DNA of 64,000 bases from Brucella oryzae (lineage in GTDB: Bacteria > Pseudomonadota > Alphaproteobacteria > Rhizobiales > Rhizobiaceae), in NCBI GenBank assembly GCA_012103035.1, contig JAAVLL010000001.1, positions 1,834,501-1,898,500 of the forward strand. The letters are read 5' to 3'. Shown here one piece after another: positions 26,563-32,732 of the stretch; positions within the stretch are counted from its first letter, which is position 1; each line of letters starts with the position of its first letter. A program made the translations under genes and the position numbers. The notes beneath the pieces are model-generated. The model was not told the DNA's origin, did no database searches, and saw only the letters and a list, made by a program, of their open reading frames with translations.

Positions 26563-26735
26563 TTTGCCCCGTTGCCCCTTCGCTTATGGCAAACGGAGGC
26601 AGCAACTGACGTTACGCCGTAGGTCAAGGTTGTCGTCGTTGTAGAGATTGCTTGAAGAAGCGTCAACTGGAGTGGAAGCGGAAAACGCGAACAAAAACCT
26701 GACGCAACAGCCAAATGTAGGTAACCGCCCGATTG

Positions 26736-27032
26736 TTACCGTGGAGAATATGTCTTGACGCGGGCGTCGATTTCTTCGTCATCGACAAAGCATTCGAGGA
26801 ATTCTTGCCATTTTTCGGCTGATTGACGCGCGTCGACCAGCATCTGTCTGAGTTCATCGATGCCGTCGTCCGTCAAAGCGGAAGTGGTTTGATCGTCGCC
26901 GGTTACGACAGTGACTATGTTTCCATAGGTCAGGTTATCGTCATTGCGGATGATCGCATACAGAAGGTCAGCATCCTCGTTGAGCATTTCGGCGACATAG
27001 TCGAGCGTGAAGACAAATCTGACCGTCGCCAT
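26736..27032 (-). CDS. IS66-associated passenger protein, acidic, unknown
   Basis: A 98-residue acidic protein, MATVRFVFTLDYVAEMLNED to EEIDARVKTYSPR, directly after the outer IS66 transposase gene; start and stop share bases as TGATG. A small protein in this position is often found in rhizobial IS66 elements and has no known role; it is not part of the standard tnpA-B-C set. I see no DNA-binding or membrane motif. Co-translation with tnpC suggests it accompanies or controls transposition. The frame is intact and ends within 16 bases of the element's terminal repeat. Confidence 0.7.
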   Translation of the reverse strand: MATVRFVFTLDYVAEMLNEDADLLYAIIRNDDNLTYGNIVTVVTGDDQTTSALTDDGIDELRQMLVDARQSAEKWQEFLECFVDDEEIDARVKTYSPR

Positions 27033-28652
27033 CAGGCTGCCTCAGCATGTTCTGCTGTGAGAGGCTTCCAGTTCCAAGGGAGCAACTCATCGAGCCGATT
27101 GATTTTGTGATCATGAATGCGGTCGAGCACATCGGCCAGATAGGCTTGCGGGTTGATGCCGTTCATCTTCGCCGTTTCAATGATCGTCATGGCGCGTGCC
27201 AGAGTTTCCGCGCCAGTATCCGCGCCCGCGAATAACCAATTCCGGCGCCCTACTCCTATCGGCCTCAGGGCTCGCTCCGCAGCATTGTTGTCCATGGCCA
27301 CACGCCCGTCCTCCAGGAACAGGGATAATGACGGCCATCTGCTCAGCCCATAGCGCAAAGCCTTCGCCAGTTCGCTTTTGCCCGGAATGCGAAGCAACTG
27401 CTTTTCCGCCCACGCGCGCAGTTCCTCGACCTTTGGCTTGCTGTGCTTTTGACGCGTGACAAGCCGTACATCGGCGGGCCGACCTGCAATATCCCGCTCG
27501 ATATCATACAGCGCGCCGATCCGATCGAGAGCCTCGCGCGCAATCCCGGATTTGTTCGCGGTCCAGATGTCATGAAAGTCACGCCGCCAATGTGCCCAGC
27601 AGGAAGCTTCGCGGAAGCGGCGCTTCCCGTCCGATCCCGGCTCATATAACTTCGCATAGCCTTTATAGCCATCAGCCTGAAGGATGCCGCTCGCCTCTCG
27701 CAGATGATGGTGGACGTGCTCTTCCTTCCAGTCGGGAGCGAAGTAATAAACCGCACCCGGCGGTGCGCCGCCTGCCCATGGACGCTGATCGCGGACATAC
27801 GTCCAAATCCTGCCCTTCTTCACACCTTTGCCCAGTCCCTTGTCGCGTAATGAGCGATCCAGCACCCGGATCGGCGTATCGTCAGCATGGAGGAGATCGC
27901 TTTTCATGATCTCGGTCTCAATACGCTCGATCAGTGGCCGAAGCACTTGCATGGCACGACCGCACCAGTCCACCAGTGTGCTGTCAGGTATATCGACACC
28001 CATCCGCGCGAAGATCTCGTTGAGGCGATAGAGCGGCAGATGATCGTCGAACTTCGAGACCAGAATATAGGCCACAAGGCCCGCACCAGCCATGCTACCC
28101 GGTATCGGGCGGCTGGGCGCAGGAACCTGCACCATCTTCTCGCAACAACGGCACGACTTCTTTGGCCGGGCGATCTCGATAACCTTCATCGTCGCTGCGA
28201 CCATGTCGAGGATTTCGCTGACATCCTCTCCGACAAGGCGTAATTCTCCACCGCAGGCAGGGCAGCAATGACCGGGATCCAGTTCCCGGCGTTCGCGAAC
28301 CGCATTTTCCGACACGCGCGGACGCCGGCGCAGCGGTCTGGTTTGTGATGTCTCATCCGGGACGCAAGCCGGATCGTCTTCGCTCCTCGACGGTCGCGGT
28401 CTCGTGTTCGGCACTGGCAATCAACAGATCCTCAAGCGCCAGTTCCAGTTGCGCAATTTCCCGCTCGATCTTTTCAGAAGACTTGCCGAAGACCTGTTTC
28501 TTCAGCCGGGCAATGCGTAGCCTCAGACCCTGGATCAGGTGGTCATGCGCTTTCAACGCCGCCGACATCTTCGCATTCTCCGCCTGCAAGGCGGTGATCA
28601 TCGCCTTCAGAAAGGCTGGATCATCAGGAAGATTTGAGCTCGCATTCGACAT
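27032..28652 (-). CDS. tnpC: IS66-family transposase TnpC (outer element), one indel
   Basis: The DDE transposase of the outer element. The N-terminal leucine-zipper-like region (MITALQAENAKMSAALKAHDH, then LRIARLKKQVFGKSSEK) is followed by a zinc-ribbon segment (CCPACGGELRLVGEDVSEIL, SCRCCEKMVQ) and the catalytic core with LLHADDTPIRVLD, ILQADGYKGYAKLY and VAMDNNAAERALRPIGVGRRNWLF. The N-terminal part is in a different frame; the join lies near 28370 (ATVEERRRSDDPACVPDE). Restored size is about 540 residues. Start chosen at MSNASSNLPDD, 28652. Confidence 0.88.
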
Positions 28653-28714
28653 GATCCTGACTAGCACAAATCAGGACAGGACGCCATAAAACAAGTAGTT
28701 TCAGTAAGATAAAA

Positions 28715-30043: not shown

Positions 30044-30076
30044 TCCTATTGGTTTTGCTTGAAGATTCAGGCTAAT

Positions 30077-31665
30077 ATGATAGGGTCGGTCATGCTGCTT
30101 CGACCCGATCCCTTGCCTCAGGATGCTGCGCAATTGACCCGGATCATTCTCTTACTCGACGAAGAGAATGCCGATCTCAAAGCGCGTATTGCCTTCCTTG
30201 AGCGCCAGCTCTTCGGGACGAAATCGGAGAAGATGACGATCATCGATCCAGCCCAGGCAACGCTCGACCTGGGCGATCTAAGCGATATTCCCGTTGCAGC
30301 CAATGACGATGCCGCACCGGCCGGTGAAGACAAAACACAGGCACGGCGATCGTCTGCCCGCAATATCGGCCGCTTGCCCAAGCATCTTCCGCGCTATGAA
30401 GAGATCATTGAGCCGGAGAGCAAGATTTGCCCCTGCTGTTCGTTCGAACTGCATTGCATCGGCACGGACGTCAGCGAGGCGCTCGACATCGTACCTGCTG
30501 TTGTCCGGGTCAAACGGACGATCCGGCCGCGCTATGCATGCCGGGCCTGTGAGAGTGCCATCGTGCAAGCACCTGCACCGGCGCGCGTGATGGACGGTGG
30601 CATGGTGACCACGGCGTTTGCCGCGCATGTCGCTGTTTCGAAGTTTGCCTGGCATCTCCCGCTCAATCGACAGGCGCAAATGCTGGCCTCCTGCGGTGTC
30701 ATCATCGATCGCGGTACGCTTGGCGCCTGGGTGATGCGGGTCGCCTGGTGGCTGGAGCTTCTCTATGACGCGCTTACCGCCTTTATCCGCTCGCAGCCGA
30801 GAGTGTTCTGTGACGAGACGCCGTTGCCGCGGCTCGAGCCGGGGCGCAAACGAACCAAGGTCTGCCAGTTATGGGCGCAGGCGGTTGACGACCGTCCCTG
30901 GAATGGTCCGGCACCGCCGGCCGTGGCCTATATCTTTGCCGAAAGCCGCAGCGCCCGCGAGATCGAGGGGCAATTGTCGTCGTTTACCGGCGTGCTTCAA
31001 GTCGATGGATACCAAGCCTATAAAACCATGGTCAAACGTCGGGGCAAGAGCAATGTCGCACCCATGCGGCTGGCCTTCTGCCTTGCTCATGCGCGGCGCA
31101 AGTTCGTCGATGTCGTCAAGCTGACGGGTTCTTCGGAGGCTTTGTCGATCCTGCCAGGATTGCGGAAGTCTATCGGATCGAAGCAAAACTGCGCGGCGAA
31201 AGCGCCGATACCCGGCTCGTCGTGAGACGTCGCGAGGCTGCTCCAGTCATGAGAGAGCTGAAAGTCCACCTCACCGAACTGCGCGACGAGGTGTCGGCGA
31301 AATCGGCGCTTGGCAAGGCCGTCAGCTACACGCTCAACCATTGGAGCGGGTTGACAGCCTGCCTTGATGATGGCCGGGTCGAGATCGATTCCAATGTGGT
31401 CGAGCGTTCAATGAAATCCGTGGCCCTGACGAGGAAGAATTCGCTGTTCGTGGGCAACGAGCGGGGTGGAAAGACTTTCGCTGTCCTCGCATCGCTCGTC
31501 AACACCTGTAAACTGAATGGTGTGGACCCCGAGGTCTGGCTTGCCGATGTGCTGGAGCGCATCATCTCCGGCAAAGTGAAAGCCAGCGAAATGGAAAGTC
31601 TCCTGCCGTGGGCCTGGAAGGCTGAGCGTGAAGCGATGACGCAGCAGGAGCGACGGGCGGCATGA
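30077..31665 (+). CDS. tnpC: IS66-family transposase TnpC (inner element), one indel
   Basis: The DDE transposase, about 529 residues when one base is restored near 31150 (SILARIAEVYRIEAKLRGES). It has an N-terminal coiled region (LLLDEENADLKARIAFLERQ), a zinc-ribbon (CPCCSFELHCIG and YACRACESAIVQAP), and the core FCDETPLPRLEPGRK, LQVDGYQAYKTMV, EIDSNVVERSMKSVALTRKN with the catalytic Glu. The sequence is clearly different from the outer TnpC, so the two IS66 elements belong to different subgroups. Start chosen at the ATG at 30077. The stop overlaps the passenger gene. Confidence 0.88.
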
Positions 31666-32223
31666 TGCACAACAGCCAGGGGACGACGGATCGACCGAAG
31701 CTTGATGACGCGGCGTTCGAAGCCTTTATCAGGGGACGCCGTCCGGCATCGCCAATCTGGTCAATGAGCGGTCTCGATGGTTATCTTACGGCTCTGATCA
31801 TTGGCCCAAAGTTCATCGACCCACGCAAATGGATCCCGGAACTGACTGGCCCGGACGCCCTGAACCTGCCGATGGAAACAACCGAACATCGGGCCGTGCA
31901 GACGATCGTTGCGGAATATAACCGTATCTCGGGAGCCTCTCTGAAACCCCGAAAGACTACCGGCCCAGGTTCACCAGGATCGATGATCAAACCTTTGATC
32001 CGTTCGATTGGGACCTCTGCTTTTGCTGGCAACAGGATACGCGCCGAGACTTTGGCAGCCGGTTCTTCGCGGTCATGCCGTCACCGGCGATATCATTGCG
32101 CCAATTCGCAAGCTCGGCGAGACAAAACGCAAAGCCACCCGCCAGGATGCCGCTGACGTCGCTGAAGCACTCGTCAATATCCGAACCTATTTTATGCCGA
32201 AGCGGGCAAAGCAAAAGTTTTGA
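31662..32223 (+). CDS. UPF0149/YecA-like passenger protein of the inner IS66, frameshifted
   Basis: It starts ATGATG across the tnpC stop, so it is co-translated with the transposase. The N-terminal half reads FEAFIRGRRPASPIWSMSGL, DGYLTALIIGPKFIDPRKWI, then a region about a target site and EYNRIS. After breaks near 31940, 31965 and 32010 it continues LLATGYAPRLWQPVL and ends IRTYFMPKRAKQKF. The DGYLTAL(I/V)xGP start and the second-half GYAPRLW segment resemble UPF0149/YecA-type proteins of unknown function, some of which accompany IS66 elements. About 187 residues when restored. It has no obvious DNA-binding motif. Confidence 0.65.
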
Positions 32224-32732
32224 CTGCCAGCCGGAAACCCATTCCGTCAATCACGAAAGACGTGGGCTATTCGTTGCGCTCACATTGCAATTCAACCATT
32301 GAGGATGAAGCATCGACGGAACTGTTCGCCTCAGAACCGAGTGGAGCGTCAGTCATGTCAACGGAAGAAACAAGGGCTCCGGCGAGGGAGGCAGAAGCCC
32401 CTTCCTCTTCAACTCGCTACGCCACATATAAATCTGCTGCCGCGATACATCGTGACGTAGCGAAACTTCTGTTACTGTCGCGCCATCAACCCCAACCGAA
32501 CTGACTATCGCAAGCTTCTCTTCGACCCGCCACCGACGGCGGCGTTCGTGACCCAGTATCTCCATCCGCATCGTCTACCTCAATCTCAAGACACGTCATT
32601 AACGTCGTCGCTAAAGACGTGTCTTACGTCACGAGGCTTTGCTTCAACAGGCGGTAGCAATCGGGCCGTTACAAATGTAGAAAATTGGAGCCTTATGATG
32701 CGGGACGTTACTATATATGCAGGTTGGGACAT

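What the first reader, a model, noticed from the sequence alone, without database searches (positions are those of the whole stretch)
26713..32680. A complete IS66 element nested inside the tnpA gene of another IS66, both with intact 8-bp target duplications
The outer element has 21-bp ends (19/21 match) and AAATGTAG on both sides; the inner has 23-bp ends (19/23) and ATTGCAAT on both sides. Excising the inner element and one octamer rebuilds the outer tnpA to within one base. The two have different ends and different TnpC proteins. The order of events is therefore readable: outer first, inner second, inactivating the outer. IS66 inserting into IS66 of another subgroup is a clean natural record of transposition and target choice.
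Basis: seen in the sequence. Interest (0 to 1): 0.7.

Follow-up and report, generated by a model that had tools for sequence, protein, structure and literature searches.

The report
One IS66 element nested inside another
One bacterial jumping gene of the IS66 family has landed inside another IS66 jumping gene; the record of the event is clean and real, but it is an ordinary kind of event.

Summary
Relatives in the same genus carry the outer element without the insert, with the octamer once, and a second copy of the inner element lies elsewhere in the same genome. So this is an IS66 inserted into tnpA of another IS66, outer first, inner second, and not a misjoin. The host is in genus Brucella in the wide sense (Ochrobactrum group).

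Correction: as assembled, the inner element is complete in its ends, not in its genes: tnpB, tnpC and a UPF0149 passenger gene are frame-shifted, as are tnpB and tnpC of the outer. Single-letter losses, mostly in homopolymers, and a completeness of 69% suggest assembly errors.

Extra: inner-type elements also lie in outer-type elements in two other genomes, at other sites. The inner group duplicates a symmetric octamer, about GNTYRANC (T3 with A6 in 34 of 65 octamers, 15 of 267 controls). Insertion into other mobile DNA seems general, not special to IS66. Ordinary IS biology; low interest.

The parts
26713..26720 (.). left 8-bp target duplication of the outer IS66 (AAATGTAG)
26721..26741 (+). 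left terminal inverted repeat of the outer IS66
   Evidence: 19 of 21 complementary to 32652-32672
26736..27032 (-). 98-aa passenger ORF of the outer element, no Pfam family
   Evidence: present in the empty relative L017, no Pfam or NCBIfam match there either
27032..28667 (-). outer tnpC, frame-shifted as assembled (overlapping ORFs 27032-28420 and 28353-28667)
   Evidence: PF03050 E 2.3e-98, PF13817, PF13005; PF13007 on the second ORF; one 545-aa ORF in relative L017
28726..29062 (-). outer tnpB region, frame-shifted as assembled (boundaries approximate)
   Evidence: PF05717 E 1.3e-18 on part; one 115-aa ORF in relative L017
29060..29151 (-). 3' part of outer tnpA, on one side of the inner element (boundaries approximate)
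   Evidence: aligned with natural relatives
29144..29151 (.). left 8-bp target duplication of the inner IS66 (ATTGCAAT, a palindrome)
29152..29174 (+). left terminal inverted repeat of the inner IS66
   Evidence: 19 of 23 matching the right end
29233..29691 (+). inner tnpA, 152 aa, open
   Evidence: PF01527 E 1.2e-11; the corresponding ORF of L009 matches NF047595 IS66_ISRel24_TnpA
29688..30040 (+). inner tnpB, frame-shifted as assembled (end approximate)
   Evidence: PF05717 E 1.1e-27; 118-aa ORF in relative L009
30059..31665 (+). inner tnpC, frame-shifted as assembled (ORFs 30059-31225 and 31222-31665)
   Evidence: PF03050 on both ORFs; 535-aa ORF in relative L009 and in the second copy of the same genome
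31662..32220 (+). inner passenger gene of family UPF0149, frame-shifted as assembled (end approximate)
   Evidence: PF03695 E 5.2e-9; 187-aa ORF in L009, PF03695 E 2.4e-15
32261..32283 (-). right terminal inverted repeat of the inner IS66
32284..32291 (.). right 8-bp target duplication of the inner IS66
32284..32580 (-). 5' part of outer tnpA, on the other side of the inner element (outer boundary approximate)
   Evidence: aligned with natural relatives
32652..32672 (-). right terminal inverted repeat of the outer IS66
32673..32680 (.). right 8-bp target duplication of the outer IS66

Best explanation
Two ordinary IS66-family transposition events, one after the other. An IS66 of one subgroup (2.8 kb: tnpA-tnpB-tnpC plus a 98-aa ORF) inserted at AAATGTAG and duplicated 8 bp. 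Later an IS66 of another subgroup (3.1 kb: tnpA-tnpB-tnpC plus a UPF0149 gene, about 85% alike in DNA to a copy annotated as ISSme3 family) inserted into the tnpA of the first at ATTGCAAT and duplicated 8 bp. Shown: ends, duplications, empty sites in kin, a second copy of the inner elsewhere in the genome. Inferred: that the DDE transposase TnpC with TnpA and TnpB made both insertions; that the outer lost tnpA function; that the frame shifts are mostly assembly errors.
For: Ends and octamers. Empty sites: in G001, G034 (three copies), G015, G031 and G010 the two outer parts meet with an 8-bp overlap, the octamer once (coordinates; letters of six loci). Second inner copy in contig C2 with AGTTAACC on both sides and 99.97% identity. 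Same inner element at 99.8% in another genus member (L009). IS66 families on tnp genes. One search lists 15 loci with both inner ends; without the window and L028 (letters N), 13 remain, of which 11 have identical octamers and 2 (L074, L080) differ by one letter.
Against: No reads were seen. Outer tnpB and tnpC and inner tnpB, tnpC and UPF0149 gene are interrupted as assembled. The nested arrangement was seen in none of the 34 other genus genomes (in which at most 8 candidates per genome were scored), so it rests on one assembly. Not all copies of these groups have matching octamers: L012/L026 has AACAGGCT on the left (18 bases from a contig start) and GAATGACG on the right, and the outer-type copy L018 has GAAGAAAG and CTTCCAGG.
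Confidence: 0.97

Rival explanations
1. Chimeric assembly: two IS66 copies from separate loci were joined by mistake.
For: The assembly looks indel-rich: completeness 69% against 98-100% in 32 of the 34 other genus genomes (the others 85 and 72). The inner element has two copies in this genome.
Against: A misjoin would not make two exact 8-bp duplications with the empty octamer in kin. The left part of the outer element is found once in the genome, so its halves have no second copy to come from.
Confidence: 0.02
2. The nest reflects target choice: the inner-group IS66 is drawn to other IS66 elements, or to the tnpA end of the outer subgroup.
For: Three insertions of the inner group into the outer group at three places: the window; G010 contig C27 (about 80 bp away, in the last codons of tnpA, opposite orientation); G033 contig C81 (about 50 bp into tnpC). 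That is 3 of 19 inner-type sites that I count in the genus and 3 of 17 outer-type copies that I count in the table (16 if the two pieces in G033 are one copy; lower bounds, since at most 8 candidates per genome were scored).
Against: Inner-group copies also lie in an IS3-type gene (G001) and an IS6/IS240-type gene (L021). In 128 frames beside 65 sites the listed Pfam hits include IS66 (TnpB 3, DDE 3) but also IS240 (3), rve (3), rve_3 (2) and DDE_Tnp_1 (2); an IS240-type protein can also hit the IS66 DDE model, so the IS66 count may be high. Mobile DNA is dispensable, so survivorship explains the excess. The G010 and G033 cases are seen from one side only, as the contigs end inside the inner element.
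Confidence: 0.1
3. The frame shifts are real decay, both elements are dead, and the inner copies were moved in trans.
For: Both inner copies of this genome share 3 of the 4 single-letter losses seen against L009.
Against: Against L009 all 4 of 4 gaps are losses in the window copy, 3 of 4 in runs of 4-5, with only 2 substitutions in 3136 positions; against L010 the same gaps and 5 substitutions. Systematic long-read error gives the same losses in every copy. The C2 copy has an open tnpC. Genome completeness is low. For the outer the picture is less one-sided: against L015 gaps lie on both sides, 2 and 2.
Confidence: 0.25

Closest known systems
IS66 family, ISSme3-like group (inner element)
   Same: tnpA-tnpB-tnpC-UPF0149 gene order and 3.1 kb; in rows H2-H20 plasmid relatives are 85-89% identical in DNA, one annotated 'IS66-like element ISSme3 family transposase' next to a UPF0149 gene
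   Different: 85.3% identical to that annotated copy, so not the same element; 99.8% identical to a copy in another member of the genus
IS66 family, outer subgroup (Sinorhizobium plasmid relatives with a hypothetical ORF of about 98 aa)
   Same: tnpA-tnpB-tnpC plus a 98-aa ORF; matching octamers at 3 of the 4 relatives with both ends read: GTAGCAGC, CGTCAATC, GCTTAAAG, not at L018
   Different: about 79% identical in DNA to the 20 plasmid rows listed; 91-95% to the fuller copies in the genus, 77% to G025; this copy carries an insert in tnpA
ISDge4, IS66 family, Deinococcus geothermalis (PMC12898284; passages seen)
   Same: 8-letter direct repeat CCTCGATG, which fits T3/A6 of the octamers found here
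   Different: single-ORF ISBst12 group, a fresh insertion into a carotenoid gene, not nested

Membership tests
IS66 family (both elements) | DDE transposase TnpC of the IS66 type | tested here: met
   PF03050 on outer and inner ORFs; NF033517 transpos_IS66 above its cut-off on the open relatives in L017 and L009
IS66 family (both elements) | accessory genes tnpA and tnpB upstream of tnpC | tested here: met
   inner PF01527 and PF05717, outer PF05717; outer tnpA seen whole only in relative L017, PF01527; NF047595 IS66_ISRel24_TnpA on L017 and L009
IS66 family (both elements) | imperfect terminal inverted repeats of about 20 bp beginning with GT | tested here: met
   19 of 21 and 19 of 23; that this is typical is recalled, and seen for two Paracoccus IS66 elements as 22/20 and 35/26 with 8 bp (PMC3281130, passages)
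IS66 family (both elements) | 8-bp target duplication | tested here: met
   AAATGTAG and ATTGCAAT; most kin copies with both ends likewise
IS66 family (both elements) | transposition activity | not testable with these tools
   no experiment; frame shifts as assembled leave it open
ISSme3 (inner element as an isoform) | DNA identity of 95% or more over the element (rule recalled) | tested here: not met
   85.3% to the S. medicae copy annotated as ISSme3 family; ISSme3 itself was not at hand

The most novel reading that the evidence does not exclude
The ISSme3-like group is guided towards other IS66 elements, or towards the tnpA/tnpB end of the outer subgroup, beyond what its symmetric octamer and the dispensability of mobile DNA would give, so that one IS66 subgroup repeatedly disables another.
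Probability: 0.07. Interest if true: 0.5.

Novelty: new member of a known kind. Interest (0 to 1): 0.15.

Why it matters
As a single event it is routine: insertion sequences often land in one another (established knowledge). It gives a tidy order of events and one useful by-product, a symmetric octamer preference (about GNTYRANC) for an IS66 group in Rhizobiales. It also warns that gene breaks in this window may come from the assembly.

Tried and rejected
Special attraction to IS66 was weighed with the two longest open frames (of 45 aa or more) in 700 bp beside each site, and a control 3 kb away. 128 frames from 65 sites hit several transposase families; 70 frames from the 35 sites with enough flank gave, among the 25 families listed of 34, one transposase-type family, Mu-transpos_C_2. 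The near list is also cut, at 25 of 52. The sets differ in size and one flank per site was used, so this is a rough comparison.

A fourth nest (G018 contig C42, L114) looked like an insertion into tnpA of another IS66, but IS66 homology begins about 56 bp beyond the inner end, and the 55-60 bp between are a repeat also matched in 10 other genomes of the 35, this one included (my count); rejected. The second inner copy of this genome lies about 370 bp from a third IS66 type, not in it. In pSmeSM11b the inner relative lies 9 bp outside an outer-type element, not in it. L093 and L080 have IS66 pieces near the inner end, but nesting was not shown. L030 has IS66 hits next to the matched part that are probably the rest of a divergent inner-type element.

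Rows dropped: 4 of 69 octamers (2 with N, both from L028; the right ends of L074 and L080, which differ by a letter from their left ends). Kept though doubtful: CCTCAATC and CCTCAATG, probably two ends of one insertion, and two more L028 octamers at a repeated BLAST hit. Ends with less than 60 bases of flank were not used, which left out the unmatched left octamer of L012/L026. In the split one Rhizobium altiplani octamer (L098/L099, without T3/A6) fell among 'others' by my oversight. A high G count at +12 of the right flank (20 of 32) was not pursued.

Literature: 8 searches. The three that combined IS66 with nesting returned no paper; the library lacks most subscription journals, so this is no proof that it is not in print. 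Of two papers I saw passages; of the rest only listings. PMC95320 is not held.
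Full report
What is there. The window holds an IS66 element with ends 26721-26741 and 32652-32672 (19 of 21 complementary) and AAATGTAG on both sides, and inside it a second IS66 element from 29152 to 32283 with ends that match 19 of 23 and ATTGCAAT on both sides. ATTGCAAT is a palindrome, which by itself leaves open whether it belongs to the inverted repeat. Other copies of the inner element begin and end at the same letters and carry other octamers, for example AGTTAACC on both sides of the second copy in this genome. 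The octamer is therefore target DNA.

Host. Genomes of the window's genus match records titled Brucella tritici, B. haematophila, B. pecoris and Ochrobactrum chromiisoli; the link of G handles to titles is my inference from contig lengths and coordinates, e.g. G018 contig 56 (3136 bases), G007 contig 39 (3507) and G010 contig 27 (7874). The window is thus from the Brucella/Ochrobactrum group (lineage).

Order of events. Natural copies of the outer element without the insert at this site give the answer. In G001, three copies of G034, G015, G031 and G010 the two halves of the outer element meet with an overlap of 8 bp, the octamer present once (coordinates). In the six relatives printed at the site the letters are ATTGCAAT (4) or AGTGCAAT (2) between similar flanks; L019 and L100 were not printed. 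The relative L017 has tnpA (130 aa), tnpB (115 aa), tnpC (545 aa) and a 98-aa ORF in one row, and the site lies in its tnpA. The outer element was there first.

State of the genes. As assembled, outer tnpC and tnpB and inner tnpB, tnpC and the UPF0149 passenger gene are frame-shifted; inner tnpA is open. Uninterrupted copies exist in kin (L009, L017), and the second inner copy of this genome has an open tnpC. Against L009 the window copy has 2 substitutions and 4 single-letter gaps in 3136 positions, all four losses in the window copy, three of them in runs of 4 or 5; the second copy shares three of the four. Against the outer relative L017 all 3 gap runs are losses in the window, against L015 2 of 4. 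The genome is rated 69% complete; 32 of the 34 other genus genomes are rated 98-100, the other two 85 and 72. Homopolymer loss in a long-read assembly is the likelier cause, but inherited decay is not excluded.

Recurrence. From the table (35 genomes, this one included; at most 8 candidates scored in each, so lower bounds) I count 17 outer-type copies with about 300 or more matched bases in sum: own, G001, G002 two, G009, G010, G015, G017, G022, G025, G031, G032, G033 two, G034 three. Shorter pieces, many at contig ends (e.g. G003, G005, G012), were left out. The two pieces of G033 may be one copy. Three carry an inner-type element: the window; G010 contig C27, where the inner left end abuts the outer about 80 bp from the window site, in the last codons of tnpA and in opposite orientation; and G033 contig C81, where the inner right end abuts the outer about 50 bp into tnpC. 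In the last two only one side is seen, since the contigs end inside the inner element. I count 19 inner-type sites in the genus, with L105 and L115 taken as one. Besides these three, one lies in an IS3-type transposase gene (L105/L115, matching the rve ORF of L101) and one in an IS6/IS240-type gene (L021, matching an ORF of L104). The other 14 were not each classified.

Target octamer. From the loci held I took 65 distinct octamers (4 of 69 dropped). Position 3 is T in 48, position 6 is A in 46, position 1 is G in 35, position 8 is C in 33. Information against the base composition of the flanks is 3.75 bits; 1000 draws of 65 from 267 control octamers taken 20-60 bp further out in the same flanks give 0.26 on average and 0.58 at most. 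T3 with A6 occurs in 34 of 65 against 15 of 267 controls; in the script's split 7 of 15 for Rhizobium altiplani and 27 of 50 elsewhere (one R. altiplani octamer was put elsewhere by oversight, so 7 of 16 and 27 of 49). The octamers are more like their own reverse complements than octamers with letters shuffled (2.77 matches against 1.99, s.d. 0.21). ATTGCAAT fits T3/A6. I did not find this preference in the searches made, but the library is partial. ISDge4 of the IS66 family is reported with the repeat CCTCGATG (PMC12898284, passages), which fits T3/A6 too.

Why nests form. Frames next to 65 insertion sites hit several transposase families (HTH_Tnp_1 4, TnpB_IS66 3, DDE_Tnp_IS66 3, DDE_Tnp_IS240 3, rve 3, rve_3 2, DDE_Tnp_1 2 of 128 frames; 25 of 52 families listed), while frames 3 kb away at 35 of these sites gave among 25 of 34 listed families one, Mu-transpos_C_2. 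Mobile DNA is where such insertions survive. No special attraction to IS66 is needed, though it is not excluded.

Verdict. A real and cleanly readable nest of two known kinds of element, of ordinary mechanism. The nested arrangement itself was seen only in this genome among the 35 of the genus. In the plasmid search, with 20 of 202 records listed, the one record that covers 80% or more of the query carries the two elements side by side, not nested.

Noticed in passing
window 26616-26661: A stretch of 46 aligned bases just outside the outer element is 89% identical to part of the 98-aa passenger gene of outer-type IS66 elements: perhaps a relic of an older IS66; no such match on the other flank (32681-34000).
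   Followed up: partly
L040 4918-8073 and L105/L115: In Ensifer sp. Root278 and in G001 the inner-type element sits in the same register in related IS3-type transposase genes (flanks about 86% alike): one old nest inherited or moved as a unit, or two insertions at one site.
   Followed up: partly
L101 5746-7022: The outer-type copy of G010 holds, besides the inner-type IS66, an interruption of 1277 bp with a 309-aa rve transposase ORF at 6070-6999.
   Followed up: partly
L114 78-136: A repeat of 55-60 bp with matches in 11 of 35 genus genomes, L114's own included, begins right at an inner-type insertion; it may be one of the palindromic repeats described in Brucella (recalled, not tested).
   Followed up: partly
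G000 contig C2; L118, L119, L120 2860-5363: A third IS66 type of about 2.5 kb in three nearly identical copies in this genome; one lies about 370 bp from the second inner copy.
   Followed up: partly
window 24254-26562: ORFs beside the nest are short or split; the frame at 25673-25945 matches Glycos_transf_2 (L008:461-733). Decay or an indel-rich assembly would both fit.
   Followed up: no
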